The notes under the pieces: generated by a model
What the model was told of the DNA's origin: nothing
The model's input: only the letters and a program-made list of their open reading frames with translations
Databases searched by the model: none
Part shown: positions 843-30,793 of the stretch, in pieces
How positions within the stretch are numbered: the first letter of the stretch is position 1
Layout of the letters: each line of letters opens with the position of its first letter
From: a virus
IMG/VR virus record: IMGVR_UViG_3300025102_000165
Span: 1 to 30,923 of that record
DNA length: 30,923 nucleotides
Reading direction: 5' to 3' (one strand)
Translations under genes and position numbers: made by a program

Positions 843-1277
843 TCATAAGGACTTTTTGTCCACTAGGTCAGAGAACTTAAAATCATTTAAAGTTTCAGTT
901 ATTTCTTTAGCATCAGCCTTATGCTTTTTCTTTTCATCCCTCCACTCGGCAGCACGGTCACGGTTACGCTCAACCTGCTTTATATACTTACCGCCATAGT
1001 TGTCCCAATCATGAATAAGCCATAACTTATTTTTTAGTTCAAGGAAACCTGAGTCAAACATGGCATCAACTAAGTCCTGAGCGTCACCCTTCCACACGCA
1101 AGCATGAGCAATCTCATCAGGGTCCTGGTCAACAATGCCATGGCCCCAATTATTTAGAGAGAACAGCCAGAAGTTAACTATAAGACCCAACGCATGAGCC
1201 TCCTCAATTTCCAGGGATCTAGCCAAGCGGCGGACCTTACGGTGGTCTCTTAAGCCAGTGTCAACACGGGTCCACAT
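843..1277 (-). CDS. phage replisome organiser / replication initiator-like protein
   Basis: 144 residues. The N-terminal ~100 residues resemble the winged-helix domain of phage replication initiators (DnaD-like or replisome-organiser N-terminal): WTRVDTGLRDHRKVRRLA, then a helix with GLIVNFWLF, an acidic GIVDQDPDEIA stretch, LVDAMFDSGFLE and a terminal IHDW. The family recognises an origin and recruits the host helicase loader. The C-terminal ~45 residues are charged and lysine-rich. A GAGGAG ribosome site lies a few bases upstream, inside the preceding gene, with a 17-bp overlap. It is the best candidate for a protein acting on the iteron region at 5621-5875, which is inference. Confidence 0.7.
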   Translation of the reverse strand: MWTRVDTGLRDHRKVRRLARSLEIEEAHALGLIVNFWLFSLNNWGHGIVDQDPDEIAHACVWKGDAQDLVDAMFDSGFLELKNKLWLIHDWDNYGGKYIKQVERNRDRAAEWRDEKKKHKADAKEITETLNDFKFSDLVDKKSL

Positions 1278-1395
1278 GCAGCTGCTCCTCTTTTATTATT
1301 TCACAAAACTTAAAATACGATAGTTGGTTAATTATTAAGTCCGGGTCTTTTTTTAATTCATTGTTTTTAAACTTTATTACATAAGCCCTAGACAT
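1261..1395 (-). CDS. small hypothetical protein
   Basis: 44 residues, MSRAYVIKFKNN onwards. The frame is open further upstream, but the ATG at 1393-1395 has a good GAGGAG ribosome site and overlaps the stop of the WhiB gene by 8 bp, so I choose it. The extra upstream codons would lie almost wholly inside WhiB. No domain is recognised. It bridges WhiB and the replisome-organiser-like gene, overlapping both, as expected for a translationally coupled early operon. Confidence 0.55.
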   Translation of the reverse strand: MSRAYVIKFKNNELKKDPDLIINQLSYFKFCEIIKEEQLHVDPC

Positions 1396-2110
1396 TCTTA
1401 TGCTCCTCAACAATTTGATGAGCAGAACGGATACCCAGTGCTTTCTTTTTATTTTCTCGCCAGGTTTTCTCATAAGCAACCATGCAACCCTTACACCAAG
1501 ACTTTAGACCACCAATACCTTTTGAACGCTTTGAGAAGTTAGCAGCATCCTGCCGAGTCTTGCATTTGCTGCAAACCTTTGAAACCAAAGAACCCCACTC
1601 ATTAAAGATAGGTGCAGCTGACGATTGTCGAACCCCAGCCTTTTTATTATCAACAATACAAGCAGCACAACGAGATTGACGACCACCCCAATCGTTGTTA
1701 TTTATTGGAATTTTATTAACACGACGATAACAAGACACGCAGCGACGACTCAATAACCGGCCATCACGATGAAACTGCGGTTCTAAATTATTAAACTCAG
1801 AGAACGCACGACGAATAGATTTATAAACATTAGATTGTAAGCTCATTTTTTGACGATTAAGTCCAGGCAAGCCCATAAAGCCTTGGTCATCTTTACGAAT
1901 AACAGAACTAGCAACACATTCAGGCATTACAGGACACCCAAGGCAGATAAGATGCGTCTCAAAATACTCGAAGTCGGTGTGTTCCCTTGGACTTCCTGGA
2001 AAAAATAACGAAGTTTTAGAGTCCCGGCAATTAGCACGCTCATACCAAGAGTCAAGAAAAGCAATTTCTTTAAATTCAATTACTAGCCGCCTGTTCATTT
2101 GCTTGCTCAT
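1388..2110 (-). CDS. WhiB-family iron-sulfur regulator with C-terminal zinc-ribbon extension
   Basis: About 240 residues. The N-terminal part carries the WhiB signature: cysteines at 28, 56, 59 and 65 (C-x27-C-x2-C-x5-C), expected to bind [4Fe-4S], followed by a GFMGLPGLNRQK segment where WhiB proteins have their G[IV]WGG turn and basic tail. WhiB proteins bind the principal sigma factor and act as regulators; they are confined to actinobacteria and their phages, so this identifies the host group. Unusually, ~120 further residues hold two CxxC pairs (124/127 with 148/151, 180/183 with 206/209). The second resembles the zinc motif seen in endonuclease VII-like phage proteins. The start could be 2110, 2098 or an upstream ATG at 2164; I chose one that limits overlap with the Rad52-like gene. 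Confidence 0.8.
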   Translation of the reverse strand: MSKQMNRRLVIEFKEIAFLDSWYERANCRDSKTSLFFPGSPREHTDFEYFETHLICLGCPVMPECVASSVIRKDDQGFMGLPGLNRQKMSLQSNVYKSIRRAFSEFNNLEPQFHRDGRLLSRRCVSCYRRVNKIPINNNDWGGRQSRCAACIVDNKKAGVRQSSAAPIFNEWGSLVSKVCSKCKTRQDAANFSKRSKGIGGLKSWCKGCMVAYEKTWRENKKKALGIRSAHQIVEEHKNV

Positions 2111-2510: not shown

Positions 2511-2673
2511 TTATTAGACCCTCCAAGTCAGAACGACGGATAAAAACACGACGAACACCCGGCAATTTAACTGACGGAAGTCGTCCATCTTTAACCATGT
2601 CATAAATAGTTGTTTTTGAAATTTTTAAAAGGTCAACTGCCTCAGCAATTGTTAATAAATTAGAGTCGCTCAT
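2500..2673 (-). CDS. helix-turn-helix excisionase-type DNA-binding protein
   Basis: 57 residues, MSDSNLLTIAEAVDLLKISK at the start. The body is a MerR/AlpA-like HTH_17 fold: helix TIAEAVDLLKI, turn, recognition helix SKTTIYDMVKDG, then the wing RLPSVKLPGVRRVFIRRSDLEGLI. This family includes phage excisionases and small regulators. It lies about 750 bp from the integrase, separated by a divergent promoter region, so a role as recombination directionality factor or as early regulator is plausible. It overlaps both neighbours (14 bp upstream, 11 bp downstream). It is also a candidate reader of the TAGATCCC sites, without direct evidence. Confidence 0.85.
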   Translation of the reverse strand: MSDSNLLTIAEAVDLLKISKTTIYDMVKDGRLPSVKLPGVRRVFIRRSDLEGLINEK

Positions 2674-2953
2674 GCGTTACCCCAACAACACCAATCGAGT
2701 GAAGTGGTAAAACATGTTGCTCGCCTTCGTGAATGAAAACAACCAAGTCAATAGCATTACGAACATAACACTTGATAAAGGTGGAATTATTAAATTCTTG
2801 TAAAACCAAATTACGACCTTTTGAATCGGCAGAATATACAAGATTGACCTTATCGCCCCGTTTATATTTTAAAGAACGCAAGGGATGACCCGTACGCACA
2901 CAAAGAGAAGAATTGACCTCAACGGCCTCTCCTTTTATTTTTTTATTAATCAC
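2660..2953 (-). CDS. hypothetical early protein
   Basis: 97 residues from a GTG start with an AGGGGTG ribosome site 5 nt upstream. First gene of the leftward early operon, directly behind the divergent promoter region. Predicted mostly beta (VNLVYSADSKGRNLVLQEF, IDLVVFIHEG, HVLPLHSIGVVGV), with basic residues near the N-terminus. No family recognised. Confidence 0.65.
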   Translation of the reverse strand: MINKKIKGEAVEVNSSLCVRTGHPLRSLKYKRGDKVNLVYSADSKGRNLVLQEFNNSTFIKCYVRNAIDLVVFIHEGEQHVLPLHSIGVVGVTHERL

Positions 2954-2978
2954 AAATCACCCCTAGCGTCTTTTTATA

Positions 2979-3008
2979 AAGATACTACAAAAGCCAAAAC
3001 ATAACCAA
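2979..3008 (-). promoter_or_regulatory. putative leftward early promoter
   Basis: On the minus strand, TTGGTT (3003-3008) and TATCTT (2979-2984) are 18 bp apart, 26 bp before the GTG at 2953. A sigma70-type match of moderate quality. The region is AT-rich and divergent from the rightward gene at 3076. Confidence 0.35.
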
Positions 3009-3040
3009 CCAAAGCTAAAGATGTTTTTCTCACTCTTGGT

Positions 3041-3069
3041 TTGTTTTTTAAAATCTAGGGATCTAAGAT
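3041..3069 (+). promoter_or_regulatory. rightward leaderless promoter containing a TAGATCCC-type site
   Basis: TTGTTT (3041-3046), 17-bp spacer, TAAGAT (3064-3069), then 6 bases and the ATG at 3076. This spacing puts the transcription start at the A of the ATG, so the mRNA would have no leader, a common arrangement in actinobacteria. GGGATCTA (3058-3065; TAGATCCC on the minus strand) fills the end of the spacer and touches the -10 box, where a bound protein would block RNA polymerase. Confidence 0.5.
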
Positions 3070-3075
3070 AATTTT

Positions 3076-3297
3076 ATGAACAACGAGCAAAAAATCCTTG
3101 ACTTCATAAACAGTTGGAAGTCAATACTTAAGAAAAGCGAGCTCGAGTCAGTCGTTGACACTTTACAAGCAGCAATCGATAACGCAGAAGTAAGTAGCCT
3201 CAAAGACAAGCAGGAAATAAGAAATAACACCATCAATAAAGCCTTATCTCAGCCAACAATACCAAAACAACCAAATACAGCAGAAATAGACAAATAA
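3076..3297 (+). CDS. lone rightward gene, hypothetical, candidate lysogeny regulator
   Basis: 73 residues and the only convincing plus-strand gene. Residues 1-52 look like helices (NEQKILDFINSWKSILKK, SELESVVDTLQAAIDNAE); the rest is polar and proline/threonine-rich. No helix-turn-helix is visible. No ribosome site precedes the ATG, consistent with leaderless expression from the promoter at 3041-3069. It sits between the divergent early operon and the 3' end of the integrase, the classical place for an immunity or maintenance gene. It may be part of the repressor system, but that rests on position only. Confidence 0.55.
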   Translation: MNNEQKILDFINSWKSILKKSELESVVDTLQAAIDNAEVSSLKDKQEIRNNTINKALSQPTIPKQPNTAEIDK

Positions 3298-3368
3298 CAG
3301 GCCACTGTAAGCCCCTGAGAGCCATTTAAAATAAGCCTTGGCCTAGTTGTCCCAGGGTCAATAGCCAA
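3298..3368. repeat. intergenic repeat copy A
   Basis: First of four related intergenic elements (others at 5885, 10983, 19343). It begins CAGGCCACTGTAAGCC, identical to copy D for 17 bases counting the A before it, and diverges to about 70% over 70 bp. Both contain GGCCTAGT near the 3' side. AGGCC and GGCCT can pair as a stem. On the minus strand, AT-rich hexamers follow a CTAGGCC block, so a leftward promoter or an RNA structure is possible. Confidence 0.6.
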
Positions 3369-3380
3369 CAAAACTAGCAC

Positions 3381-3409: not shown

Positions 3410-3429
3410 CCTTGCAAAAACGCACCTTT

Positions 3430-4623
3430 TTATTTTAGTTCATCAGCCCATGCTGATTGGCCAGCAACAAGGTCATCATCAGAGATGTGAACGTAGGTGC
3501 GTAAAAATGTTTCGGGAGTTTGACCCAAAAGAGTTGCAGAAGTTCCAATAGGAACGTTTGCACGGTGTAGACCCGTAGCAACAGTATGACGAGTGGCATG
3601 AAGTCCCATATAACGGAAACCTCCCTGCTTACAATAACGCTTAAAAGCGGCAGTATAAGAATCAGGCACAACAGCTCGACCATTACCACGATGGAATAAC
3701 CACCCATCATTGGACCATAAATCACGGTCCTCATTATTTGAGTTCCAAGAACGACCATAGACCTCGCCTGAGTGACATCTCTCTAGGTGCCTTTTTAGTT
3801 CAGCAGTAGAGTCAACGTCAAGAGGAACCATACGGTTATGGTTTTTCTTAGAGCTAGACCCAACGAAGTCTACAGTACGTCCTCCATTTCTTACTTTTTC
3901 TACGTGTTTATTGACTGAAATAACGGCAGTAGAGCCATCGGCAGAGTACTTGATATCCTCAAGCCTAATGCCACAAAGCTCACCACGTCTAAGACCCGAA
4001 GTCAAAGCAAGATAAAAGAAAAAATAATCACGTCTAATGTTGTCATTATTTTTAATAAAGTGCAAGATCCCTCGAACTTCCTCGATTGAGTAAGCGTCTC
4101 GGTTAGTCTTTGGAATTTTTACACGAACAGTCGCCTTTTTTTTCATTGGATTAGTTCCCAGGGAGTTAGTCTCAACAGCCAACTCAAAAACAGAACTAAG
4201 AACACCCTGCAAGCGAGCAAGATAACCCTCAGACAAACCCTCAGCTCGTTTAATTTCAAGCCAACGGTTCAACATAACACTATCAATCTTTGTCATTTTT
4301 AAAGACCCAAAGTGCTCCATCCAATGATTGTCCAAATACATTTGATACTTTTTTAATGTTTCGGCACGCTCAACCTTAACACGGCAAGACGGCAGCCAAA
4401 CATTAAGACAAAAGGCTTTAAAATTAGTTTTATCAACTACGTGCTTTATGGTGCCTTTATTGACACCGTCAAGATATTCAGTAACAGACGCTTGAGCCTC
4501 ACCTTTAGTTTTAAAAGTCCCTGACCAAATTGTCTTATTTTTACCTTCAATAACTTCTTTAACACTAGCTTGATAAACTGTGCCTTTTTTACTTTCACGT
4601 TTACGAATATGAGTCCAAGCCAT
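3430..4623 (-). CDS. int: tyrosine integrase
   Basis: 397 residues, the usual size for phage integrases. An N-terminal arm-binding region (VYQASVKEVIEGKNKTIWSG) is followed by a core-binding helical domain (about 65-165) and a catalytic domain. Catalytic residues seen: Arg in TSGLRRGELCG, HATRH with His 342 and Arg 345, and the nucleophile Tyr 377 in FLRTYVH. The position usually held by His or Trp (LGH) is Gln 368 (LLGQTPET). Substitutions here are tolerated in some recombinases, but it is worth noting. The enzyme integrates the phage into the host chromosome. The attP site is probably within 3298-3430 or the divergent region, but I cannot identify its core. It overlaps the upstream gene by 1 bp (TAATG). 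Confidence 0.95.
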   Translation of the reverse strand: MAWTHIRKRESKKGTVYQASVKEVIEGKNKTIWSGTFKTKGEAQASVTEYLDGVNKGTIKHVVDKTNFKAFCLNVWLPSCRVKVERAETLKKYQMYLDNHWMEHFGSLKMTKIDSVMLNRWLEIKRAEGLSEGYLARLQGVLSSVFELAVETNSLGTNPMKKKATVRVKIPKTNRDAYSIEEVRGILHFIKNNDNIRRDYFFFYLALTSGLRRGELCGIRLEDIKYSADGSTAVISVNKHVEKVRNGGRTVDFVGSSSKKNHNRMVPLDVDSTAELKRHLERCHSGEVYGRSWNSNNEDRDLWSNDGWLFHRGNGRAVVPDSYTAAFKRYCKQGGFRYMGLHATRHTVATGLHRANVPIGTSATLLGQTPETFLRTYVHISDDDLVAGQSAWADELK

Positions 4624-5605: not shown

Positions 5606-5620
5606 ATTTTTTCTTTATTT

Positions 5621-5945: not shown

Positions 5946-7172
5946 TCAATAAGCAAGACGGTCGTCGTCAAGTTGCCCATAAGTTGCAGAGTTAAGACGA
6001 AAAAACGCAGAGTTCACAGCATCAGATACATTAAAACGGACAACAAAGTCCTGCGGCGAGATAGCAAAAGAAATACCATCAATAACAGACTCACGAGCCA
6101 CCTGAGCAGACTCGCCAGGCGGGGTTATTTCAATTTTTATACCGCTTGATAATTCAAGACCAAGAACCGCTAATTGGTTAGAAGTTGATAAAGTGTCAAC
6201 ATTTAAAACCATAGACGAAAACCTAGGCAAAGCGTCCTTAAATTTAGCAAGCAAAAACTTTGCAGCATTCAAAACATCAGAATCACTTGAATTCAAAAGA
6301 CTGGTCCTCTCCAGGTAACGCTTTAAATATTTAGCTTGACTAGCCGTGTCACTTGCCGACTGAACAGATCCCCCTTCTCTTTTTAAATTTATGACATTAA
6401 AAATTAAATCGTCATCAACAGGTTGGCTAACTTCCAAATAAGGAATGTCAGAACCATCATCAGAAAACACTTGTGAGGAAGTAGTAGGAAAAGATGCGTG
6501 CCGGTTTTTAAAATTAAGAGTTCCATCAGCACCAGTGAAAAATGCACCGTTCTCGCTTTTTTCAATTTCTTGAATTAAACCCAAAACATTGGTGGACTTA
6601 TTTATTGACTGCATCGTTGAGTTGCCGGTGTCAATTGAAGTTGAACCTGAAAAGGCAACCTGAGAATTAGACAAGATAGATGAAACCATTGACCCGGAGT
6701 CAGTAGAACTAACAGACAAAGAAGTAGCCTCAATATTTGACAACTTAACAAAAGAGTCAGAACAAGAAACCTGGACCTTTGAAGTTGTTTTATTTGGATA
6801 TTGAGTAACCCAATCAGTAACAAAGCCAGTGTAAAGATTTGTATAAGATGACTCACCAGCAACAAGAGCATCGATAGAAACCTCAATCAATGGCTCAATG
6901 CCTGGGTAATAAGGACTGTTAATATTTGCTGGGTTAAAACGACCATCGCTCGAGTTTTCAAGCAAAACAGTTGCGGTACCAGAACTAAAAGAGTTTAAAT
7001 CACGGGATCTACCACGGTTAACATTTACAGATTGAACAAAAGAAGTGACATCAACTAAAGTCACCCCACCACCTAAAACATTCCCTGAGGCCAAGCGGCC
7101 ACGAATAGCGTCATCCAAAGTAAAAACATTAGGGGTAAAACCAAAACGAACACGCAGAGTAGGTGCAGCCAT
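5946..7172 (-). CDS. minor tail protein (distal tail / hub-like)
   Basis: 408 residues directly after the tape measure gene, with a 1-bp overlap (TAATG). The N-terminus has a beta-rich region with DVTSFVQSVNVNRGRSR and TATVLLENSSDGRFNPAN, a pattern common in actinophage minor tail proteins that form the distal tail or hub. Further on are YTGFVTDWVTQYPN and a stretch resembling baseplate-hub folds (FSDDGSDIPYLEVSQPVDDDL). Its position as last gene of the tail operon fits a tail-tip role. The exact structural part is inferred from position. Confidence 0.8.
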   Translation of the reverse strand: MAAPTLRVRFGFTPNVFTLDDAIRGRLASGNVLGGGVTLVDVTSFVQSVNVNRGRSRDLNSFSSGTATVLLENSSDGRFNPANINSPYYPGIEPLIEVSIDALVAGESSYTNLYTGFVTDWVTQYPNKTTSKVQVSCSDSFVKLSNIEATSLSVSSTDSGSMVSSILSNSQVAFSGSTSIDTGNSTMQSINKSTNVLGLIQEIEKSENGAFFTGADGTLNFKNRHASFPTTSSQVFSDDGSDIPYLEVSQPVDDDLIFNVINLKREGGSVQSASDTASQAKYLKRYLERTSLLNSSDSDVLNAAKFLLAKFKDALPRFSSMVLNVDTLSTSNQLAVLGLELSSGIKIEITPPGESAQVARESVIDGISFAISPQDFVVRFNVSDAVNSAFFRLNSATYGQLDDDRLAY

Positions 7173-9388
7173 TAAATTATGTCCAAAGCACTTATACGAA
7201 GTGGAAGTGGACCATTAGAACGCTGGAACTTTCTAAGTTGCTCGACAATTTCACGACCAATCTCAGAACCATCAGCACCCATGCCAGCGTTGACTGTTAT
7301 GTTTACATTTGAGCGGCCAAGGTTGTCGCCAGCTCTCGACAACGGAATCACAGCCTCAGGCCCACTCTCACCGATTAAAGCGGTCGTGGGTTGAGTTACA
7401 ATGCCACCCTTGGCCAAGCGTGGAATATTTGGGATGTCAGGTGGGTCAATATCGATACCAAAGAACGAAAAGCCCAGGCCTGAATTTAATGAGCTGATAA
7501 AGCCGTTTAATTTGTCAATAACTTTATTAAATACAAACTTAACACCCTCAAATACAACACCCGCTGAAGTTTTTAAAACCGTTGAAATAGTTTCTAGTAA
7601 ACCCTTACCGAAATCTTTTAACTTAGGAACGATGAAATCCTTGACTTTTTTCAAACCATCAATGATGACACCAGCTAAAACTTTTACAAAGTCCCAGCTG
7701 TTTTTGAAAAAATCCAGCAGATCCCTAAAGATACCTTTAAAACCATCAACAGCCAACGAAACATCGCCAGTTAATAAACCAGTTATAACCTTTACAACAG
7801 ACTCAAAAAAACTTTTTAATCTATTAAACACCTCAGTGACTTTTAAAACAGCAGACTCAAAACCAGCCTGAAACCCCTCGCCCTTAAAGAAGTTAATAAA
7901 ATTAGAAAATAAGTTTTTTAGAAACGCTATAGAATTAGTAACAAAGTTTCTAAAACCCTCAACATTATCAAATGCAAAACGGAAACCAGCAGCCAAAGCA
8001 GCAACAGCTCCAAGAATTAATACAAAAGGACTAAACAAAGCAGCAACAGCCGTAGCTAAAGATACAACAGATGCAAGCAAGATACCGCCAATAATTGTAG
8101 CCAAAGCAGTAAAAGCAACCTTGGGGTTTTCTTTTATAAAGGCCCGGATGCGTTCAAAAACAGGAGTCAACCTCTCCTCAAGCTCCTCAAATGCCGTACG
8201 AATATTTTTAATTAAACCAAGAAATTGCTCCGAACCAATGAACGCACGAACAGCATCACTAAACTCCTGAACCTTAGGTTGGAGTCGTTCAAAAACACCT
8301 CGAGCTTTATCAATAAAATCTAAAAGAACCGGTGCTAATTTTTGGCCAATTTCAATTACAAACACATTAATACCCGCTCGAATTTTATCAAGGACAAGAC
8401 CGATACCAGACGCACCAGTTTGAAAAGCAGCATCCGTAGCACCAACAGCCTCACCAGCCGCCTTAATTTCCTGTGCAAACTTTTCAGCACCCTTACCAGT
8501 TAAAACTTGAGCAGCACCCGCAGCCTCAACAGAACCAAAATAAGCAGACAAAGATACACCACTAGAGTCTGCGTCTTTTTTAATTAAATTAAGAGCGTCA
8601 GCAACATTTCCGCCTTCAGCAATAAAAGCAGCAAAATCCTTGCCCGCAAGCTCCTTGAATTTTTTTGAAATAACAGTTGTTGGTTTGGACAATTCAGCAA
8701 AAACAGCACGCAACTGAGTCGCAGCAACAGAAGTAGGAGTACCAGCCGCCGTCAAAGTTGCAAGAGCAGCAGTAACATCACCAAACTCAACACCAAGACC
8801 AGCAGCAACAGGTGCAACCTGGAATAGGGATCTAGACAATTCATCGACCGTGGTCTTACCACCTTTAACAGCCGTAAAAATTAAATCGCTTGCCTTTTCA
8901 AAACTTACAGCCTCCGGACCAAAAGCATTGACAACAGAAGTCAAGCCATCAACAGCAACACCTAAATCAGTAGCACCACCAACAGCCAACTTATTAGCAG
9001 TTTCTAAAAACGCAAAAACATTATCAGGCGGTACACCAGCAGATAAAGAGTTATAAAGTGAGGGGATGACCTCCTCAGGCAAAACACCAATGGCTTTTGA
9101 AGTTGAGAGAACATCAGCCTGCATGGTGTCCATTGCAGCTTTAGAAATGCCAGGCATAAGAGTAAAGACCTCAAGCATTCCATCCTCAAAAGCACGAAAC
9201 TCGCCGATTGCTTTAGTTGCAACAGCACCAGCAGCTAAACCCATACCAGCAAAAACTTTATTTATTTGACCACCGACTCGGTTCATGTCTTGACCTAAAG
9301 CGTCAAACTTTTTTCCAACAGCTCCAACCTTGCCTAGAAATTTTTTAGTGTCGGCAAGAAATTCAAACCTTAATGTTTTCTTTTCCAT
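7172..9388 (-). CDS. tape measure protein
   Basis: 738 residues, the longest gene of the tail module. The N-terminal domain resembles the TP901 phage tail tape measure family (FEDGMLEVFTLMPGISK, then SLYNSLSAGVPPDNVFAFLE and repeated Ala/Gly-rich helices). The middle has hydrophobic segments (VAFTALATIIGGILLASVV, FSPFVLILGAVAALAAGF) that could cross the host membrane during ejection, and the C-terminus carries AKGGIVTQPTTALIGESGPE, common in tape measures. Using the usual ~1.5 angstrom per residue, the tail would be about 110 nm. It follows the tail assembly chaperone and one extra gene. No lysozyme domain is visible. Confidence 0.93.
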   Translation of the reverse strand: MEKKTLRFEFLADTKKFLGKVGAVGKKFDALGQDMNRVGGQINKVFAGMGLAAGAVATKAIGEFRAFEDGMLEVFTLMPGISKAAMDTMQADVLSTSKAIGVLPEEVIPSLYNSLSAGVPPDNVFAFLETANKLAVGGATDLGVAVDGLTSVVNAFGPEAVSFEKASDLIFTAVKGGKTTVDELSRSLFQVAPVAAGLGVEFGDVTAALATLTAAGTPTSVAATQLRAVFAELSKPTTVISKKFKELAGKDFAAFIAEGGNVADALNLIKKDADSSGVSLSAYFGSVEAAGAAQVLTGKGAEKFAQEIKAAGEAVGATDAAFQTGASGIGLVLDKIRAGINVFVIEIGQKLAPVLLDFIDKARGVFERLQPKVQEFSDAVRAFIGSEQFLGLIKNIRTAFEELEERLTPVFERIRAFIKENPKVAFTALATIIGGILLASVVSLATAVAALFSPFVLILGAVAALAAGFRFAFDNVEGFRNFVTNSIAFLKNLFSNFINFFKGEGFQAGFESAVLKVTEVFNRLKSFFESVVKVITGLLTGDVSLAVDGFKGIFRDLLDFFKNSWDFVKVLAGVIIDGLKKVKDFIVPKLKDFGKGLLETISTVLKTSAGVVFEGVKFVFNKVIDKLNGFISSLNSGLGFSFFGIDIDPPDIPNIPRLAKGGIVTQPTTALIGESGPEAVIPLSRAGDNLGRSNVNITVNAGMGADGSEIGREIVEQLRKFQRSNGPLPLRISALDII

Positions 9389-10050
9389 TATTTACCCTTG
9401 ATGGCTTTCTTTGCTAGTTTTAACATTTGGTCAGCATAATCCTCAGAAAGTCCCGGAACGATTTTAGCTATTGTTTTTTCAGCAACATAACCGCCAAACT
9501 TGGTCCCCTCAGGAAAACCACCCTGACGAGTCCAAAAGTCACCAACCCACTCCTTATAAACCCTACGCTTCATTTTTTCAGCAGGATAATAAGAACCTTT
9601 TATACCTCGATTATTTAATTTAACTCCAGGTTGAACAGCACGACCAACAGCACCACGCTGCGTCTTGCTTATTTGATTTGATGAACCCAAATCTCTAGAC
9701 CGACCAACAATAAGATTAGGTATAAATTGATACTTTCGGCCAAATTCTAAGTTTCTAACAAATTTATTGGTTTTACGAATATCAAGGTGTGCAGTTTTAT
9801 CAGTGCCACCACCAACAAAACCAGCAGCTCCCCGTTTTCTTTTTGGTACAGCTGAACCTTGCTCACGCTGACGCAAAGCCTCAGCACGAGTAGCAGCCTC
9901 AACCTCTTTACTTAAATCCTTATGAAAGGATCTAAACTCCTTACGAACCTCGCCAGCTTTTTCTAAGCCACGCAGCCCACGAATAACATCGTTTAAACCG
10001 TCAGCAGCAATACCGGACCCACTGGTCGTTTTTGTTAAACCTTTAGCCAT
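9388..10050 (-). CDS. tail-associated protein between chaperone and tape measure
   Basis: 220 residues, basic. The first ~60 residues are helical (LNDVIRGLRGLEKAGEVRKE, then a KEVEAATRAEALRQRE helix), resembling the start of HK97 gp10-like tail-completion proteins. The rest is lysine- and glycine-rich with aromatic patches (NLEFGRKYQFIPN, GDFWTRQGGF). It overlaps the end of the frameshifted chaperone frame and the tape measure start by 1 bp each. Most siphoviruses have the tape measure directly after the chaperones, so an intervening gene is unusual. Assignment is by position and weak resemblance. Confidence 0.6.
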   Translation of the reverse strand: MAKGLTKTTSGSGIAADGLNDVIRGLRGLEKAGEVRKEFRSFHKDLSKEVEAATRAEALRQREQGSAVPKRKRGAAGFVGGGTDKTAHLDIRKTNKFVRNLEFGRKYQFIPNLIVGRSRDLGSSNQISKTQRGAVGRAVQPGVKLNNRGIKGSYYPAEKMKRRVYKEWVGDFWTRQGGFPEGTKFGGYVAEKTIAKIVPGLSEDYADQMLKLAKKAIKGK

Positions 10051-11769: not shown

Positions 11770-12201
11770 TTAATGAATTGAAATAAGTTTAATTTTTTCA
11801 TTTGGTCCTTTCCAACACGCAGCAGACTCAGCCCAATGGCCCCAGCCTTGCGGTGTTTTATATTTTAAGAACGCAGCAAAGTGCGTAGAAGTGTGGGGAT
11901 CTAAAGCAGAACCCTCAAAATTTAATTTTGACGAAACCCAGGTCCAGGTTTTATCTATAAACTGCCATAAACCGGCAGCAGATGATGTGGGGTTTTTAGC
12001 TGACGAAACCCCGGAACTTTCACAGCCAATAATTTTATAAGCAGTTAAGTGGTCCTCAGGTAGGAAATGGTCCTCAACAAGGTCAGACCACTTGGCTCCA
12101 AGAACCCAAACATTACGATGAGCAAGGCAATGCTGATAAACAGCAACATCTTGATTAGTTGCAGGCATACTCAAGGTGCAAGCTAACAATAAAGCTACCA
12201 A
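11770..12201 (-). CDS. secreted lytic transglycosylase-like lysis protein
   Basis: 143 residues from a TTG start with an AGGGGG ribosome site. A short N-terminal hydrophobic segment (LLLACTLSMPATNQ) looks like a signal peptide or signal anchor. The body resembles the SLT/lysozyme-like fold: IIGCESSGV with probable catalytic Glu 61, then AAGLWQF (75-81) and DKTWTWV, as in actinobacterial transglycosylase-like domains. It would cleave peptidoglycan glycan strands. It is last in the lysis block, downstream of a two-helix membrane protein. Two cysteines beyond the core could form a disulfide. Confidence 0.75.
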   Translation of the reverse strand: MVALLLACTLSMPATNQDVAVYQHCLAHRNVWVLGAKWSDLVEDHFLPEDHLTAYKIIGCESSGVSSAKNPTSSAAGLWQFIDKTWTWVSSKLNFEGSALDPHTSTHFAAFLKYKTPQGWGHWAESAACWKGPNEKIKLISIH

Positions 12202-12424: not shown

Positions 12425-14361
12425 TTTATCCTCCTAAACGGCACAACACTAGCCGAGATAATCTGACTAGCAATAATAACGGGAACGACAACCTCCTGTG
12501 CCTTTTCTTTTTGTTGATTGGTTAAGTCATCGCCCAAACCAGCAAAGCTAATCTCCTCAAAATCCACCTGAAAAATTACGGCTGGATTTTCAAGAAACTC
12601 CTCAACCTGAACCTCAACAACAACATCAGACAAGTTGTAATCCTCAACTTCTTTATTCTCAACAGCACGCTCGACAAAAGTGTCAACCGCCTCAGCAACA
12701 GCCTCGTCAGTTTTAACAGCTTCAGCAATTACAGCAACATCATCAGACTCCTCAAGACCAAGAACTTCAGCAACCGTCTCGACCTGCTCCTCGGTCAATT
12801 CCTCAACATCATCGATAGCAGACTCAACAACCTCCTGGACAACAACAACCTGCTCCTCGGTCAATTCCTCAACACCAGCGTCGACAACGTCCTCGATTAT
12901 TTCCACCTTCTCAGTTTCCGTCAAAGTTTCCACATAGACCTCAACGACCTCCTCGATTTCATCCTCAGTAAGGTCCTCGATTATTTCCTCAGGGATTTCA
13001 GGAATTTCATCCTCGACAATTTCAATTGACTCAATGACTTCAATAACAATCTCAGCGATTTCATCGTCAACCTCCTCAAAGACTTCATCCTCAAGGTCTA
13101 ACTCAACAACCTCGACAATTTCATCAGAATCAAAATCCTCAATAATTTCTGGCAGATCTAAAACATTTTCATCCTCCTCTACAATTATAAGAACGATGTC
13201 ATCTGGAAATTCAATGTCATCAAGCTCTAGGACTTCCTCCTCAATAATAAAGATGTCAAAGTCAGTCTCCTCAAGCTCTTGAATAACATCAATAAACTCT
13301 TGGAGGTCCTCCTCCTCAAGGTTTAAATCCTCAAGGTCAATAGACTCCTCAAGTTCCGCTAAAATTTCAGCCTCAGCTTGAGCCTCAAGCTCCTCCAGGT
13401 AAATTTGATATTCAATTTCCTCACGGACCTCACGCTCCTCATCAGTTTCAAAAAATCCAGTTTCCTCAAAGTTAGCATCTAGCTCAGCTTGATACTCAGC
13501 CTCCTCACGCTCAAACCTTTCATCATCAGTTTCTAAATAACCAGTCTCATCAAAGTTGGCCTCCATTTCCTTATTTAAAGCCTCCTCAGCAGCAATACGA
13601 GCAGCCTCCTCCTCAGCAGCAATACGAGCAGCCTCCTCCTCAGCAGCAATACGAGCAGCCTCCTCCTCAGCAGCAAGACGAGCAGCCTCGGCTTCAGCAG
13701 CCTCACGGTCGGACCTTTCCTGGTTAGTTTCAAGAATTCCAGTCTCAGAAAAATTATTATTTCTTTCAATTGTCAAGGGATCTAAAGTAGTGGTGGTCGT
13801 GGTTGAAGTTGTTGTGGTTGAAGTGGTTGTGGTTGAAGTGGTTGTGGTTGTTGGAGTTCCAAAAGTCCAAAAAATATCATCAACAATAACATAGTCATCA
13901 TAAACAATCTCAACAGAAGTAATAAATTTGTCAGTAACCGAATGCGTTATATTTTCAAACATAGTCGCAACATTCGCATTGGACTGAGCGTCATAATTTT
14001 CAGTAACAGAAGTTGAATCGCTGTAGTTCCAAGTGACCGAATAAGCATCATTAACGCAGCCTGATAAGAAACCAGCAGAACTAACACTTGACTCAGGAAA
14101 AGTCATGGTCAAAACAGCATCGTCAACATTCTGCATATTAAAATGAACAGCCTGAGAACTTGAACCACACTCACCGGAATGAATATCTAAACGGTTCCAG
14201 GACGCACCACCATAGTCAAAAGTAAGACTGGTCTGATTTTGACCATCATCAGCAATACGCTCGTAAGTTGTTGATTGATTAGCCAATGCCGGGTAAGGAA
14301 AAACTAAAAATAAAACAAGTCCAATACGAACTAAAGTATTAAATTTATGAACGAAGTTAAT
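12421..14361 (-). CDS. very acidic secreted repeat protein with lectin-like N-terminus
   Basis: About 645 residues. Order: signal peptide (LVRIGLVLFLVFPYPALA, cleavage after ALA), a ~140-residue beta-rich domain with conserved Cys and Trp and a VDDIFW end, a Thr-rich linker (~20 residues), four AARIAAEEE-type 9-residue repeats, three copies of an NF.ETG..ET..ER motif, ~300 residues dominated by Glu, Asp, Val and Ile, and a hydrophobic C-terminal segment (EVVVPVIIASQIISASVV). The signal peptide is in frame only upstream of the TTG at 14284-14286. The frame opens at 14361 with an ATT, 9 nt after AAGGG, and has no ATG, GTG or TTG in between. Initiation at ATT, or a sequence error, would explain this. 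It lies inside the lysis block; a cell-surface or virion-surface role is possible. Confidence 0.75.
   Translation of the reverse strand: MNFVHKFNTLVRIGLVLFLVFPYPALANQSTTYERIADDGQNQTSLTFDYGGASWNRLDIHSGECGSSSQAVHFNMQNVDDAVLTMTFPESSVSSAGFLSGCVNDAYSVTWNYSDSTSVTENYDAQSNANVATMFENITHSVTDKFITSVEIVYDDYVIVDDIFWTFGTPTTTTTSTTTTSTTTTSTTTTTTLDPLTIERNNNFSETGILETNQERSDREAAEAEAARLAAEEEAARIAAEEEAARIAAEEEAARIAAEEALNKEMEANFDETGYLETDDERFEREEAEYQAELDANFEETGFFETDEEREVREEIEYQIYLEELEAQAEAEILAELEESIDLEDLNLEEEDLQEFIDVIQELEETDFDIFIIEEEVLELDDIEFPDDIVLIIVEEDENVLDLPEIIEDFDSDEIVEVVELDLEDEVFEEVDDEIAEIVIEVIESIEIVEDEIPEIPEEIIEDLTEDEIEEVVEVYVETLTETEKVEIIEDVVDAGVEELTEEQVVVVQEVVESAIDDVEELTEEQVETVAEVLGLEESDDVAVIAEAVKTDEAVAEAVDTFVERAVENKEVEDYNLSDVVVEVQVEEFLENPAVIFQVDFEEISFAGLGDDLTNQQKEKAQEVVVPVIIASQIISASVVPFRRIN
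13577..13681. repeat. 27-bp coding tandem repeat
   Basis: Three near-identical 27-bp units (GCAGCCTCCTCCTCAGCAGC then AATACGA; the last has AAGACGA) at 13601, 13628 and 13655, preceded by a 24-bp copy at 13577. They encode the AARIAAEEE repeats. Near-identity in DNA suggests recent slippage expansion. A triplet-repeat tract for the Thr linker lies at about 13788-13858. Confidence 0.85.
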
Positions 14362-14366: not shown

Positions 14367-14570
14367 TTAACCCTTATTTTGAGGGGTCCACTCTTCAAGG
14401 CCATTCTGTAAAGCGGTCACCGCAGCGACGGCCCCAGCAACAAGTGCGTTAGTTAAGACATCCATCTCAACCATACCAGTACCTGATGCGGTAAGAATAC
14501 CTAGAAAAGCCTGGATAAAAGTCCTTAGGGTTCTAATCCCGACCTTTATAGCCCAATCTTTAAAATCCAT
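14367..14570 (-). CDS. holin
   Basis: 67 residues with a layout like actinophage r1t-type holins: a short charged N-terminus (MDFKDWAIKVGIRTLRTF), a first hydrophobic segment (IQAFLGILTASG), a turn with EMDV, a second helix (LTNALVAGAVAAVTALQNGL) and a polar tail. It would form membrane holes that time lysis. It lies 9 bp after the cell-wall enzyme gene at 14579, supporting a lysis-cassette role. Confidence 0.75.
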   Translation of the reverse strand: MDFKDWAIKVGIRTLRTFIQAFLGILTASGTGMVEMDVLTNALVAGAVAAVTALQNGLEEWTPQNKG

Positions 14571-14578: not shown

Positions 14579-15322
14579 CTAAGCGTGTTTTGATAGAGCA
14601 ATAGCGGTCATAAAGTCGATTGAGCCAGACGGGTCCAAGTTGTTATCGCTTTGAAAGGACTTAACGGCCTCCTCAGTCTCGCCACCAAAGTCAGAGTCAG
14701 CTCCAAACTTAGGCATACAAGCAGCGTCCCATTTAAGCAGTAACTCCTGCAAAAATTTAACATTTAAACCATTATCACCTTTAGACAACAGATGCTCCTT
14801 TTTTTCAATTTTAATTTTACTACTTGCAGCAGGAGTCGAAACTTGGCCTAGATTAGAGTATTTAATTGTGACTTTTTCGCCAGCAAGCAAAGCGTCCCGG
14901 ACTTTAGGATAAAGAGCCTCATAAGCGGCACGGGATCTACCAATAAAGCCGTCCTCGTTTTTATCCAGGTCGGCCTGAGTTTGGCCAACAAGCAGACAGC
15001 CCAGGGTGTCAAATTGGTCATTCCCGGGATGGATTAATATAAATTGGAACCCAGGCACCGATTGCAGCCAAAGCATGCCTTGATGCCAACCAGGACCAAA
15101 ACCATCCTTTGCATCATAGTGCTTTTTAGTACGGTCATGAAAACCGCCAACGGTTCTTAATTTTATTTCATACTCGCCAAGTGGAATAGCGGTCTCGCCG
15201 TAGACTTTAGGACCGTCCCGAACTTCATCCTCCAGGGTAAAACACTCCCGGACACCATCAATAAACATCTCGCCATTTGTGGCATCGGAACCAAACTGAG
15301 TTCTTTTTACTTCAAGTAACAT
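14579..15322 (-). CDS. endolysin-like protein: DUF5675 catalytic domain plus peptidoglycan-binding domain
   Basis: 247 residues. The N-terminal ~150 residues match the DUF5675 fold as I recall it: FTLEDEVRDGPKVYGETAIP, then LIHPGN with His 98 and DTLGCLLVGQ with Cys 109, resembling the His/Cys pair of L,D-transpeptidase-like enzymes. Residues ~175-245 are a PG_binding_1-type repeat (LLSKGDNGLNVKFLQELL, ETEEAVKSFQSDNNLDPSG). The pairing with a holin suggests a cell-wall lysis enzyme, though the chemistry of DUF5675 is not established to my knowledge. An unusually AT-rich upstream stretch contains the perfect palindrome ACACTTAAAGTGT (15337-15349). Confidence 0.75.
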   Translation of the reverse strand: MLLEVKRTQFGSDATNGEMFIDGVRECFTLEDEVRDGPKVYGETAIPLGEYEIKLRTVGGFHDRTKKHYDAKDGFGPGWHQGMLWLQSVPGFQFILIHPGNDQFDTLGCLLVGQTQADLDKNEDGFIGRSRAAYEALYPKVRDALLAGEKVTIKYSNLGQVSTPAASSKIKIEKKEHLLSKGDNGLNVKFLQELLLKWDAACMPKFGADSDFGGETEEAVKSFQSDNNLDPSGSIDFMTAIALSKHA

Positions 15323-19278: not shown

Positions 19279-19307
19279 ATTATAAAGCAAAAACAAGGGA
19301 TCTAAAA
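19279..19307 (-). promoter_or_regulatory. leaderless promoter of the fibre operon with an embedded TAGATCCC site
   Basis: Minus strand TATAAT (19279-19284) lies 7 nt before the ATG at 19271, so the predicted start is the ATG itself. TAGATCCC (19297-19304) sits 12 bp upstream of the -10 box and overlaps a weak -35 (TTTTAG, 19302-19307). No ribosome site precedes the gene. Confidence 0.55.
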
Positions 19308-23210: not shown

Positions 23211-24911
23211 TTAGGAACGGCTCTGCATGTCCCAAATTTCCAAGTCACGAATTGCAGCCCTCACATTAGACTTGGTTATTTTAGGCGTTGGTAATAAATC
23301 ATTTAATTGACTTATTACTTCTTTTATTTTTGACACTTGCTCATCATTAGGTTCATTATTTCTAACTTCGCTAAGGACCCCCTGAAGTTCCCCTAAATCA
23401 ACACCACGAATAGACGCAAGCGTTGCAGGGTTAGCAGGCCAAGTGACAACTGAAACATCCAGCAGGCGTAACTCCTTAAGAGTACGAGTCTCGCCATTCT
23501 CGCTGAATTCATCCTTGATGGCGTGAAAACCAAAAGACATCTCGCTTAGATCCCCTCGTTTTAGAGCAGAACCAATCTCGGCAACCCTTGGGTTGCTTTC
23601 ATCAAGTTGAGCTTTCACAAATAAACCGTGCTCATCCTCCCGGAGTTCTAAAGTACCGGACTTGGTGCGAGCCAATGGAATACCATCATGATTGATTAAA
23701 AATTTAACATCGTCCTGTTCATTTAAAGTTTTAGAGAACGCACCCTGGTTGACGATTTCATTATAAACACCACGGGAGTCAGCTACAGAATAAGGGGAAT
23801 TGAAAACAGACGCATATCCAGTAAAAACTAAATCGTCAGTGTCAATACTTGCCTCAGCCCGAAGTTCAAAAAAACGGGTTTCTTTATTTTCACTCATGCG
23901 TTTTATAATACCAACAGACTGATTATACGACTGTGGCCTAGTTGCAGAACGGTCATCCTCATGCCTTGCAACTTGACGCTCGGCCCATTTCATAGCATCC
24001 ATGCGAGTAGCAGCAGCTAAAGAACCACCCCACAAAAGCCAAGCCACGAGTCCAGGACTCATGCGTTCGCTTTCGCCGGATAAAAATTTTTTAGCAGAAT
24101 CGCCTTGAAAATCTGAAACATGACGCTTGAACCAGGCCTGCATACGCAAAGCCTTATCATGAGAGATAACACCATCACGCATTTGACGAGCCTCACGTTT
24201 GGTTTTTTCAGTTAGACCTTGGCCTGCAAATTGTAAATTTTCAAGACCTCGAGCTGCGTTATTTTTTATAAAGGCAGGTACACTAATCTCATGCCTGAAA
24301 TCTTTGTTATTTTTTTCTTTTTTTGGTGCGTGCTTTGGATGAGCCTCAGGAAGTAAATCATTGTCACCAACATACTTTGGATTTTTTGGTTTATCGTTTA
24401 TTAAAAGATAACCAAAAGCCTTAAGACGAGCAAGACCCCAGGCATTCCTTGAAACTCCAGGACGATGAGAAGTTGAGTAGGCCCCAAAGCCACGACGCAC
24501 TACAGCCTTAGCGGTTGAAGTTCTTAATCGCCTCCAAGTGCTCATGCCCCCTTCTTTTACTTTTTCATTATGCAGCTCAACGATTGTCGCTATTGATTTT
24601 TCAGTTTGCTCAGAAAATTTAATACTCCCGGACTTACCTGATGCAGAACCGGGTTCATTTTTAGCTGATCCCTTGACCTGGTCCTTTTTTGGTGCTGGCT
24701 CAGACTCAGCCCTTTCATCAACAAGAGTTGGGTCCTCATCACTTGCGTGCTTTTTACCAGTTAAATTTTCGTAGTCCTCCATTTTCTCACAAGGCATATA
24801 GAAAACCTCGCCGTCAATTTCATGAGTATGAGAACCAACACAACCAATCTCTTGAGCTTTAGCTTCAGCCTCAGCCTTTGTACCGTACAAGTCCTGCTCA
24901 GGATATGGCAC
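23211..24911 (-). CDS. prohead protease fused to a large N-terminal region
   Basis: 566 residues from a GTG start. The C-terminal part, from about residue 340 (KETRFFELRAEASIDTDDLV), is an HK97-family (S78) prohead protease with His in FLINHDG and Ser in EMSFGF, which would cleave the capsid delta domain. The N-terminal ~330 residues are not part of that family: YGTKAEAEAKAQEIGC with a CVGSHTHEIDG patch, a disordered acidic/Ser linker, and a helical region with NAWGLARLKAFGYLL, TKREARQMRDG and LVAWLLWGGS. That last region recalls a phage head-morphogenesis domain seen elsewhere in actinophages. The portal overlaps by 1 bp. Confidence 0.85.
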   Translation of the reverse strand: MPYPEQDLYGTKAEAEAKAQEIGCVGSHTHEIDGEVFYMPCEKMEDYENLTGKKHASDEDPTLVDERAESEPAPKKDQVKGSAKNEPGSASGKSGSIKFSEQTEKSIATIVELHNEKVKEGGMSTWRRLRTSTAKAVVRRGFGAYSTSHRPGVSRNAWGLARLKAFGYLLINDKPKNPKYVGDNDLLPEAHPKHAPKKEKNNKDFRHEISVPAFIKNNAARGLENLQFAGQGLTEKTKREARQMRDGVISHDKALRMQAWFKRHVSDFQGDSAKKFLSGESERMSPGLVAWLLWGGSLAAATRMDAMKWAERQVARHEDDRSATRPQSYNQSVGIIKRMSENKETRFFELRAEASIDTDDLVFTGYASVFNSPYSVADSRGVYNEIVNQGAFSKTLNEQDDVKFLINHDGIPLARTKSGTLELREDEHGLFVKAQLDESNPRVAEIGSALKRGDLSEMSFGFHAIKDEFSENGETRTLKELRLLDVSVVTWPANPATLASIRGVDLGELQGVLSEVRNNEPNDEQVSKIKEVISQLNDLLPTPKITKSNVRAAIRDLEIWDMQSRS

Positions 24912-28846: not shown

Positions 28847-29355
28847 TCTTCCTCCAGGAGTTCTAATATTCGTGGGTCAGTTGCAGGGTCCTCGCTCGCA
28901 TTTAACAAATCATTGATAGACGCAAGAGAAGTAGCAGCCTCACCAACTGCAATACCAAGCCGTTGGCGAGCCATTGGAGTTAAACCCAACTCATTCTCAA
29001 GCCTTAAAATCTGCGTTTCAAGTTTTAAAGCATGCTCAGCCAACGGGTTAGTTCTTATTTGACCAGTTGAACCACGAACCACTAGAGATTTTTTAACAAC
29101 TTTTTGAACCCTGGCATATTGGTCATACATTCCAAACAGACGCTCGACCGCTGGTAGGTCAACCTTTTGAGCTACACCAGCAACATCAGAATCCCAATAC
29201 TCAAACCAACGGTCCCGTGTTTGTTTTAACCAGCCACGGGTAGGTTTTGGTGGCGAGGACTTAAGCTCACTTGAGCCTGAAATTATTTGTAATTCTCTAG
29301 ATCTATGACCCTGAGCGTCCTCAGGCGGCTTTGCAAGCGGCCCCCGTTTACCCAT
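28843..29355 (-). CDS. terS: terminase small subunit
   Basis: 170 residues from the ATG at 29353-29355, which has AAAGG 8 nt upstream; a GTG nine bases further upstream is open but would lie on that site. It resembles P27-type small terminases: GKRGPLAKPPEDAQGHRSRE at the start, a central helical block (ERLFGMYDQYARVQKVVKKS), NPLAEHALKLETQILRLENE and the conserved LGLTPMARQRLG. It recognises the packaging site and stimulates the large subunit. It overlaps the upstream methyltransferase stop by 8 bp. Confidence 0.88.
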   Translation of the reverse strand: MGKRGPLAKPPEDAQGHRSRELQIISGSSELKSSPPKPTRGWLKQTRDRWFEYWDSDVAGVAQKVDLPAVERLFGMYDQYARVQKVVKKSLVVRGSTGQIRTNPLAEHALKLETQILRLENELGLTPMARQRLGIAVGEAATSLASINDLLNASEDPATDPRILELLEEE

Positions 29356-30793
29356 CCGCCGCACCTTTAAGGTGCTTTATTTCCTCATCAGGATAAGCAG
29401 CAGCAAAACGCTCAACAATGACATCACAATAAGCAGGGTCAAGTTCAATCGTGTAACACTTACGACCAAGAGCCTGACAAGCAATAAGAGTAGAACCGGA
29501 ACCAGCAAAAGGGTCAAGAACTAAGTCCCCAGGCTTACTTGAATATTTTATAGCACGAGATAAAAGCTCCAGGGGTTTCATAGTTGGATGCTCCTTATTA
29601 TTTCTAGGCTTCGGCACATTCCAAACATTTGACGGACCCCAAACTAAGTCAGCAATATTAAAATTACGAGTACCCTCAATGAAATTAGAGTCAGGCCTTG
29701 AGAACATGCCAAGACTAAGGTCGCTGGGTTGAGCAGCGTTAATATTGTTAAGCAGTTCCTCAGCCTTGGCGTTCTCGTTTAGCTCAACAGTTAAATTAAA
29801 ACCCGAGTCAAAAGTGTCAAGCTGGCCGGAACCAATAGAAGTCGCCTCCAGGTCATCCCAAACATTTGAGATGTCACGCTTACCAATAAAATAATGAGCC
29901 TTTCCTTCAGGCCAGCCATACATTATAGGCTCAAACCTCCAGTGAAAATCAGAACGACCCAGCACAAAAGTGTCCTTGACCCATATTATATTGGACGAGT
30001 AATGCATTTTCGCTTTATCCCAGGCCTCAAAGACTGAACGAGTTGCAGCAGTTGCGTAAAACATATAAACAGCACCATCAGTAAACGCATGAATTAAAGA
30101 TAAAGAATCATAAAGAAACTTAGTAAAACTATCCTCGGCCATTTTATCGTTTTCAATTGAACGGCCGTGGACATCCTTGTAGTCAACATTATACGGTGGG
30201 TCAGTTAGACAAAGAGCAGCCGGACCTTTTAAACCATAGAACGAACGAGCCTCAGTAGCAGAACCACAAACAAGCCAATGCTCACCTAAACGATAAACAT
30301 CGCCCGGCTTGGTTTCGGGATCTAAAGGCCTCTCGCCAATTTCGCCCTCATCAGGAAGTTCAGCCTCAATACCTAACAACTTCTCAAGGTCAGCTAAATC
30401 ATAACCAGTAGCGTCAAGCATTGACTCATCAACAGCAACACGCTCAAGCATTTCAGCCAAAGCAGAATCGTCATAAGTTCCAAGGTCAGCCGTTCTATTA
30501 TCGGCCAAAGCAAAAGCCTCAGATACCGATACATCCTCATCGACAATTGACGCAGCAATATGAGTCCAGCCAAGTTTGATAGCAGCCAACAATTGATGGT
30601 TGCCTGAAATTACAATTAAAGAACCATTTGACTCACGACGAGCCACAATAGGCTTACGCTGGCCAAACTTCTCATAGCTTTTGACAACAGCCTCAACATT
30701 GCCTCGCCTAGGATTTCCAGGCAAAGCCGTAAACTGATCGATTGGCGTAGCCAAACTTTTTAGGTCGTCAATTATTTTATGTTTAATTTGCAT
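29348..30793 (-). CDS. ParB-like domain fused to DNA N6-adenine methyltransferase
   Basis: 481 residues. Residues ~14-140 are a ParB/Srx-like domain (ALPGNPRRGN, then VISGNHQLLAAIKLGW with GNHQLLA where ParB has GxxRxxA). Residues ~160-475 are a beta-class N6/N4 methyltransferase: DPPYN (198-202) before FAGSGST (429-435), the order that defines the class, then IELDPAYCDV. This fusion is common in actinophages and prophages. It would modify phage DNA, with a possible target-binding ParB part. It is the first gene of the late operon, with a GGGGGA ribosome site 9-10 nt before the ATG. Confidence 0.93.
   Translation of the reverse strand: MQIKHKIIDDLKSLATPIDQFTALPGNPRRGNVEAVVKSYEKFGQRKPIVARRESNGSLIVISGNHQLLAAIKLGWTHIAASIVDEDVSVSEAFALADNRTADLGTYDDSALAEMLERVAVDESMLDATGYDLADLEKLLGIEAELPDEGEIGERPLDPETKPGDVYRLGEHWLVCGSATEARSFYGLKGPAALCLTDPPYNVDYKDVHGRSIENDKMAEDSFTKFLYDSLSLIHAFTDGAVYMFYATAATRSVFEAWDKAKMHYSSNIIWVKDTFVLGRSDFHWRFEPIMYGWPEGKAHYFIGKRDISNVWDDLEATSIGSGQLDTFDSGFNLTVELNENAKAEELLNNINAAQPSDLSLGMFSRPDSNFIEGTRNFNIADLVWGPSNVWNVPKPRNNKEHPTMKPLELLSRAIKYSSKPGDLVLDPFAGSGSTLIACQALGRKCYTIELDPAYCDVIVERFAAAYPDEEIKHLKGAADG

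What the first reader, a model, noticed from the sequence alone, without database searches (positions are those of the whole stretch)
1214..30324. Strand-polarised TAGATCCC octamer spread across the genome: a possible new stoperator system
Eleven exact copies lie on the minus strand (transcription direction) against one on the plus strand. From the approximate base composition I would expect fewer than one per strand. They are spaced through early, lysis, tail and packaging genes in two reading frames. Two exact intergenic copies, and a one-mismatch third at 5594, fall within or against -35/-10 elements. In L5-type mycobacteriophages, asymmetric one-way sites bound by the repressor silence prophage transcription; this looks analogous with an unrelated sequence. 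Alternatives are a polar recombination or segregation motif.
Basis: partly seen in the sequence, partly recalled or inferred. Interest (0 to 1): 0.87.

Follow-up and report, generated by a model that had tools for sequence, protein, structure and literature searches.

The report
One-way DNA word scattered through phage
A marine temperate phage, probably of an actinobacterium, carries the exact eight-letter word TAGATCCC about fifty times more often than its proteins and codons predict, almost always on the strand it transcribes; its close relatives put different words at some of the same promoter spots, so it is probably a repressor-type binding site resembling, but not belonging to, the known mycobacteriophage 'stoperators'.

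Summary
In detail: 11 exact TAGATCCC on the coding strand, 1 on the other. Against shuffles that keep every protein and codon count, 0.2-0.3 are expected; it is the strongest 8-mer in the window. The word is exact: one-mismatch forms are not in excess (3 seen, 6.5 expected). It occurs in two reading frames and between genes and is evenly spaced (shortest gap 1155 bp, P 0.007). It is not a word of the likely host group (~10/Mb in 42 Actinomarinales, at most ~45/Mb in 296 Acidimicrobiia, against ~390/Mb here).

The stoperator reading is partly supported. One copy lies between the -35 and -10 of the divergent gene's predicted promoter; relative G012 keeps that promoter but has its own commonest one-way word there. 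A late intergenic copy also has relatives' words in register. Distant relative L024 keeps 3 of 4 copies. Against it: the same pipeline finds the true stoperators of phage RedRock, but 16 of 18 of those sit at gene edges, while 9 of 11 here lie inside genes. No L5-type repressor was found, and many relatives carry their GATC-containing word the other way round. I propose lineage-specific one-way operator/stoperator-like sites (0.4). Binding is untested.

The parts
1214..1221 (-). TAGATCCC copy, coding (GCT AGA TCC CTG) in the replication-initiator-like gene 843-1277
   Evidence: G012 has TAGATCAC here
3058..3065 (-). TAGATCCC copy, intergenic; read on the plus strand it lies between -35 TTGTTT and -10 TAAGAT of the predicted promoter of ORF 3076-3297, running into the -10 by two bases. 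Candidate operator
   Evidence: G012 keeps the same hexamers and 17-bp spacing but has CCAGGAC, the reverse complement of its own top 7-mer GTCCTGG
3076..3297 (+). Only clearly oppositely transcribed gene, 73 aa, all-helical model; next to the integrase gene
   Evidence: no Pfam or PHROG hit; AlphaFold2 pLDDT 75, helices 3-17 and 20-57; 54-57% identical homologue in G012, remnant only in L150
5594..5601 (-). One-mismatch copy CAGATCCC, intergenic, overlapping the promoter-like GCGACA-18-TAAAAT upstream of ORF 5233-5544
7004..7011 (-). TAGATCCC copy, coding (GGT AGA TCC CGT)
   Evidence: L150 and L151 carry AGGGATC about 10 bp away in the same conserved RSRDL peptide
8827..8834 (-). TAGATCCC copy, coding, tape-measure-like gene
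   Evidence: G012 has TAGATCAT
9927..9934 (-). One-mismatch TAGATCCT, coding
11896..11903 (-). TAGATCCC copy, coding (TTA GAT CCC) in the transglycosylase-like gene
   Evidence: G017 and L151 carry AGGGATC about 9 bp away
13777..13784 (-). TAGATCCC copy, coding (TTA GAT CCC)
14528..14535 (-). One-mismatch TAGAACCC, coding; probably chance
14932..14939 (-). TAGATCCC copy, coding, endolysin-like gene
19297..19304 (-). TAGATCCC copy, intergenic, overlapping the -35 of TTTAGA-16-TATAAT (10 of 12 matches)
   Evidence: relatives have AGGGATC (G017, L019, L021) or TAGATCCA (L024, L059) in register
23547..23554 (+). Only opposite-strand copy; probably chance
   Evidence: 1 against ~0.25 expected; absent in L009
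25861..25868 (-). TAGATCCC copy, coding, portal gene
   Evidence: kept in L009 and L010
27030..27037 (-). TAGATCCC copy, coding (TTA GAT CCC), large terminase gene
   Evidence: kept in L009, L010, L024 and L025
30317..30324 (-). TAGATCCC copy, coding (TTA GAT CCC), DNA methylase gene
   Evidence: TAGATCCA in L024
2500..2673 (-). 57-aa HTH_17 protein, excisionase/Cox-like; candidate reader of a short asymmetric site (inferred)
   Evidence: Pfam HTH_17 1e-14; PHROG excisionase/regulator 2e-9
3430..4623 (-). Tyrosine integrase; marks the phage as temperate
   Evidence: Pfam Phage_integrase 5e-17

Best explanation
TAGATCCC is most likely the recognition word of a phage-coded DNA-binding regulator. 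At intergenic copies it would act as an operator over the -35 or spacer (3058, 19297, near copy 5594). The other copies, evenly spread and all on the transcribed strand, would act as one-way roadblocks to RNA polymerase or as reserve sites in the prophage. Specificity would turn over between relatives, so each lineage has its own word. Shown here: excess, exactness, polarity, even spacing, placement in predicted promoters, in-register word swaps, no excess in the likely host group. Inferred: that a protein binds, which protein, and that transcription is blocked.
For: 11 sense copies against 0.2-0.3 under a protein- and codon-preserving null. The same method on RedRock, a stoperator phage, also ranks its stoperator core first (CTTGACAT, 16 against 0.59, 2 antisense), so the statistical signature matches. 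The divergent promoter TTGTTT-17-TAAGAT is identical in the window and G012, yet the spacer holds the top word of each genome (chance ~0.004 and ~0.005). In the 19297 gap, relatives have AGGGATC or TAGATCCA in register. L024, about 75% identical, keeps TAGATCC at 3 of 4 places against a 14-16% baseline. Seven of 10 TAGATC loci in relatives coincide with window copies (0.16 expected), although conserved Arg-Ser peptides explain part of this. Even spacing, P 0.007 for the shortest gap. Not a word of the likely host group.
Against: 9 of 11 copies are deep in genes, unlike RedRock (2 of 18). Near-consensus variants are missing, which is unusual for a repressor site. AGGGATC in relatives is on the opposite strand relative to transcription, whereas L5 stoperators lose function when reversed (PMC9283540). 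No repressor identified: ORF 3076 has no recognised DNA-binding fold; the HTH_17 protein could equally be only an excisionase. G012's GTCCTGG is also common in relatives that lack this promoter. The in-register AGGGATC matches come from only 3 window sites (P 0.012). The promoters are consensus predictions, and the region around 3058 and 5594 holds no more promoter-like matches than shuffled sequence.
Confidence: 0.4

Rival explanations
1. It is a Chi-like or other one-way recombination, segregation or packaging word: an exact, polar, dispersed octamer read by a host or phage DNA-processing enzyme.
For: Exactness, no flanking consensus, indifference to gene borders, polarity and even spacing are all Chi-like. 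The phage has a Rad52-like annealing protein at 2076-2510.
Against: A host Chi should be abundant in the host; the word is at background in 42 Actinomarinales and 296 Acidimicrobiia genomes. Most close relatives lack it. It gives no reason for in-register word swaps inside promoters.
Confidence: 0.18
2. It is tied to DNA modification or restriction: GATC is a restriction target, and TAGATCCC is a protected or required modification site, perhaps of the phage methylases.
For: GATC is strongly avoided (30 against 91) and over a third of what remains is the octamer. Asp-Pro is GAT CCC only inside TTAGATCCC (4 times) and GAC CCN otherwise (17 times), an all-or-none pattern. The window codes a C5 and an N6/N4 methylase. 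Exact recognition is typical of such enzymes.
Against: A merely tolerated site would stay near 0.2 copies instead of rising to 11. Strand polarity is not explained by a site that only needs to be modified or tolerated. The N6/N4 methylase is 78-83% identical in relatives without the word.
Confidence: 0.2
3. It is read in the mRNA (UAGAUCCC), for example by an RNase, small RNA or RNA-binding regulator, or is a side effect of the strong sense-strand word avoidance of these phages.
For: Polarity follows the coding strand, and these phages avoid many 5-mers on the sense strand only.
Against: The 3058 copy is in a predicted promoter spacer and its in-register replacement is most simply explained at DNA level. 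Avoidance of other words is unlikely by itself to raise one 8-mer fifty-fold.
Confidence: 0.12
4. Chance, composition or codon effects.
For: The order-4 Markov expectation is 1.1 and order 5 is 9.9, but those models contain the word's own copies.
Against: P about 1e-13.7 under the codon null; leave-one-out still 1e-12.7; two frames plus intergenic copies.
Confidence: 0.02

Closest known systems
Stoperators of Cluster A (L5-clade) mycobacteriophages
   Same: Over-represented asymmetric word dispersed through the genome, oriented with transcription, a few copies in promoters, specificity differing between relatives (PMC6550527, PMC9283540; RedRock control)
   Different: 8 bp exact rather than a 13-14 bp consensus; mostly deep inside genes; no homologue of the two-domain repressor found; many relatives carry a GATC-containing word in reversed orientation
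Chi sites of RecBCD/AddAB
   Same: Exact polar octamer, dispersed, evenly spaced, indifferent to gene borders
   Different: Not enriched in the likely host group; lineage-specific among close relatives; copies inside predicted promoter elements
P2 Cox boxes / excisionase-repressor sites
   Same: Short asymmetric sites read by small winged-helix proteins similar to the 57-aa HTH_17 protein (from own knowledge and PHROG names)
   Different: Cox boxes cluster near att and the early promoter rather than being spread over the genome (own knowledge)

Membership tests
L5-clade stoperators | Large excess of an asymmetric word in the genome | tested here: met
   positive control RedRock
L5-clade stoperators | Orientation with transcription | tested here: met
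   11 of 12 copies; the single opposite one is at chance level
L5-clade stoperators | Location in short intergenic spaces or gene edges | tested here: not met
   2 of 11 intergenic and 9 inside genes, against 16 of 18 at gene edges or between genes in RedRock
L5-clade stoperators | 13-14 bp consensus with some variation | tested here: not met
   strict 8-mer, few one-mismatch forms, no consensus flank
L5-clade stoperators | Cognate ~180-196 aa repressor with HTH and Stoperator domains | tested here: not met
   tblastn of the 196-aa RedRock repressor gives no hit in the window and nothing below E 2 in relatives; a sequence search only
L5-clade stoperators | At least one site in a promoter as operator | tested here: met
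   3058 and 19297 overlap predicted promoter elements; the promoters themselves are predictions
L5-clade stoperators | Motif differs between relatives together with the repressor | tested here: inconclusive
   words differ in register but the cognate protein is unknown
L5-clade stoperators | Repressor binding and one-way block of elongation | not testable with these tools
   needs bench work
Chi sites | Over-representation in the host genome | tested here: not met
   ~10/Mb in Actinomarinales, at most ~45/Mb in 296 Acidimicrobiia; the true host is unknown
Chi sites | Exact, polar, dispersed octamer | tested here: met
Methyltransferase / restriction recognition word | Modified base in the word | not testable with these tools
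   no methylation data

The most novel reading that the evidence does not exclude
These phages carry a new kind of genome-wide one-way DNA code: an exact, lineage-specific word with a GATC core, placed without regard to gene borders, that can be exchanged or even inverted as a set during evolution while some positions stay, read by an unidentified phage or host factor. It would coexist with near-absolute sense-strand bans on other short words.
Probability: 0.25. Interest if true: 0.82.

Novelty: new variant of a known kind. Interest (0 to 1): 0.6.

Why it matters
Genome-wide one-way repressor sites are, to my knowledge, established in essentially one group, the Cluster A mycobacteriophages. 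An independent case in marine phages, with a different word, placement inside genes and specificity that turns over between close relatives, would show that silencing or marking a prophage by dispersed one-way sites arises repeatedly. It would also give a compact test bed for how the specificity switches. If it is not a stoperator system, an exact polar word this strongly selected in a 31-kb genome still needs an explanation.

Tried and rejected
Chance or composition: rejected. Codon-pair effect: rejected, two frames plus intergenic copies. Host Chi-like word: no excess in 42 Actinomarinales or 296 Acidimicrobiia genomes, but the host is inferred only. Insertion of a mobile 8-bp element: rejected, nearly all copies align with relatives without a gap at the octamer, so they arose by substitution. 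GATC avoidance with TAGATCCC as a tolerated gap: explains the missing variants, not eleven copies. ORF 3076 as a classical repressor: no HTH. L5-type repressor: not found. AGGGATC as operator of the XRE repressor in L151-L153: no GGGATC in that regulatory gap. The phage DNA collection had no near match to bases 1-25000. Look-ups of the accessions I remembered for L5 and Bxb1 failed, so RedRock served as control.

Full report
WHAT THE WINDOW IS. G000 is an IMG/VR virus record of exactly 30,923 bp. It is a temperate siphophage-like genome with nearly all genes on the minus strand: ParB-N/N6-N4 DNA methylase 29348-30793, small terminase, C5 methylase, large terminase 26244-27695, portal, protease fusion, capsid, tail genes, endolysin, integrase 3430-4623, HTH_17 protein 2500-2673, Rad52-like, WhiB fusion, and an HNH gene at the end (names without a family hit are from sequence and gene order). 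Relatives are IMG/VR contigs. A 61% capsid relative lies in a Candidatus Actinomarina single-cell genome (L128). The host is therefore probably a marine actinobacterium, but this is inferred.

Eleven exact sense copies and one antisense. Markov expectations of order 1-3 are 0.04-0.12. A stricter null, which shuffles synonymous codons within the genome and so keeps every protein and the codon usage, gives 0.20-0.28; TAGATCCC is the top 8-mer. The word is exact: all one-mismatch forms together number 3 against 6.5 expected, and neither flank is fixed. It falls in two codon phases and twice between genes. Copies are more evenly spaced than random (shortest gap 1155 bp, P 0.007). The single antisense copy is at chance level and absent from the 98-99% identical L009, which keeps both sense copies it covers.

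GATC CONTEXT. GATC is depleted (30 against 91), and of the 30, eleven are TAGATCCC and eighteen TAGATC. Asp-Pro is written GAT CCC only within TTAGATCCC and GAC CCN in the other 17 cases. So GATC is mostly removed except in a few contexts, chiefly the word. Given 30 GATCs, chance would place about 0.08 in this exact context (30 x 0.25/91), so tolerance alone does not explain eleven.

RELATIVES. Most relatives lack the word, including some with 95% identical terminase. In several of them the sense strand is instead enriched for AGGGATC: G017 8:0, L151 8:1, L152 and L153 7:0, G016 14:4. The closest full-length relative, G012, has GTCCTGG 15:1 as its top 7-mer, although this word is also common in relatives. 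Two places link the words. First, the promoter of the divergent gene: TTGTTT-17-TAAGAT is identical in the window and G012, but the spacer carries the genome's own top word in each. Second, the gap after CTAGGCCATAA at 19297: TAGATCCC in the window, TAGATCCA in L024/L059, TAGGGATC in G017 and others. At two coding sites (7004, 11896) relatives carry AGGGATC 9-10 bp from the window's word. Counted as unique loci this is 3 against 0.47 (P 0.012), suggestive only. L024 keeps TAGATCC at 3 of 4 places where same-composition words are kept 14-16% of the time.

HOST WORD? No sign of it. About 10 per Mb in 42 Actinomarinales and at most about 45 per Mb in 296 Acidimicrobiia, against about 390 per Mb here.

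POSITIVE CONTROL. The same script on mycobacteriophage RedRock, named among the Cluster A phages in PMC6550527, returns CTTGACAT first (16 against 0.59, 2 antisense). Sixteen of its eighteen sites lie within 30 nt of gene ends or between genes. The window matches in excess and polarity but not in location, length or degeneracy. RedRock's 196-aa repressor finds no homologue in the window.

CANDIDATE READERS. ORF 3076 is the only clearly opposed gene and lies next to the integrase, but its model is two helices without a DNA-binding fold (modest confidence, two-sequence alignment). The 57-aa HTH_17 protein is excisionase/Cox-like. The locus is variable: L151-L153 have an XRE repressor operon there, G016 and L154 nothing, L150 only a remnant of ORF 3076. 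None of these was tied to the word.

VERDICT. The word is real and under strong selection. The best account is a set of one-way operator/stoperator-like sites with lineage-specific sequence (0.4), with methylation-linked (0.2), Chi-like (0.18) and mRNA-level (0.12) rivals. It works like a stoperator set in some respects but is not a member of the L5 family on the features tested.

Noticed in passing
window, whole, and relatives G012, G015-G017, L023, L045, L051, L150, L151: Near-absolute strand-specific avoidance of short words against a synonymous-codon null: GAATC sense 0/26 but antisense 33/31; GCTTC 0/31, TCTTC 1/35, TGATC 0/29 and others; similar pattern in these relatives and absent in Actinomarinales host genes. 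Looks like mRNA-level targeting or one-orientation (Type III-like) restriction evasion.
   Followed up: partly
window minus strand, 7 sites incl. intergenic copies about 100 bp 3' of the integrase gene and beside 19297: A second dispersed one-way octamer, CTAGGCCA (7:0 against ~0.2), strongly conserved at homologous places in relatives (5/5 in G016, 6/7 in G017 against ~24% baseline).
   Followed up: partly
window and relatives: CCTGG is 2-4 times enriched on the sense strand in the window's group but completely absent from G018, G022 and L128; in G018 and G022 GATC is instead two-fold enriched.
   Followed up: partly
L151-L153, 11248-12295; L150 near 11400: The immunity locus next to the integrase is exchanged between relatives: XRE repressor plus a second gene in L151-L153, no gene in G016 and L154, a remnant of ORF 3076 in L150.
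   Followed up: partly
27692-28846 (window) and G012 2656-4080: The C5 methylase is 82.5% identical to G012 in its first part but 98.8% in its second, with an extra stretch between them in G012: looks like recent exchange or insertion.
   Followed up: no
5620-5790: Short repeats (GGTACGGAC..., AATAACGGA..., TTCCGTTAATTCC...) upstream of the 5233-5544 gene; possible origin or attachment region (seen).
   Followed up: no
1388-2164: WhiB-like domain fused to a C-terminal region similar to endonuclease VII families.
   Followed up: no
L125 (PACV01000075.1): A contig labelled Flavobacteriaceae MAG carries a phage of this actinobacterial-type group (81% capsid identity); probably mis-binned.
   Followed up: no
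G018: GCGATCGC, the HIP1 palindrome known from cyanobacteria, and CGATCG are enriched (5 against 0.2 and 18 against 1.5-2) in a relative of the phage.
   Followed up: no
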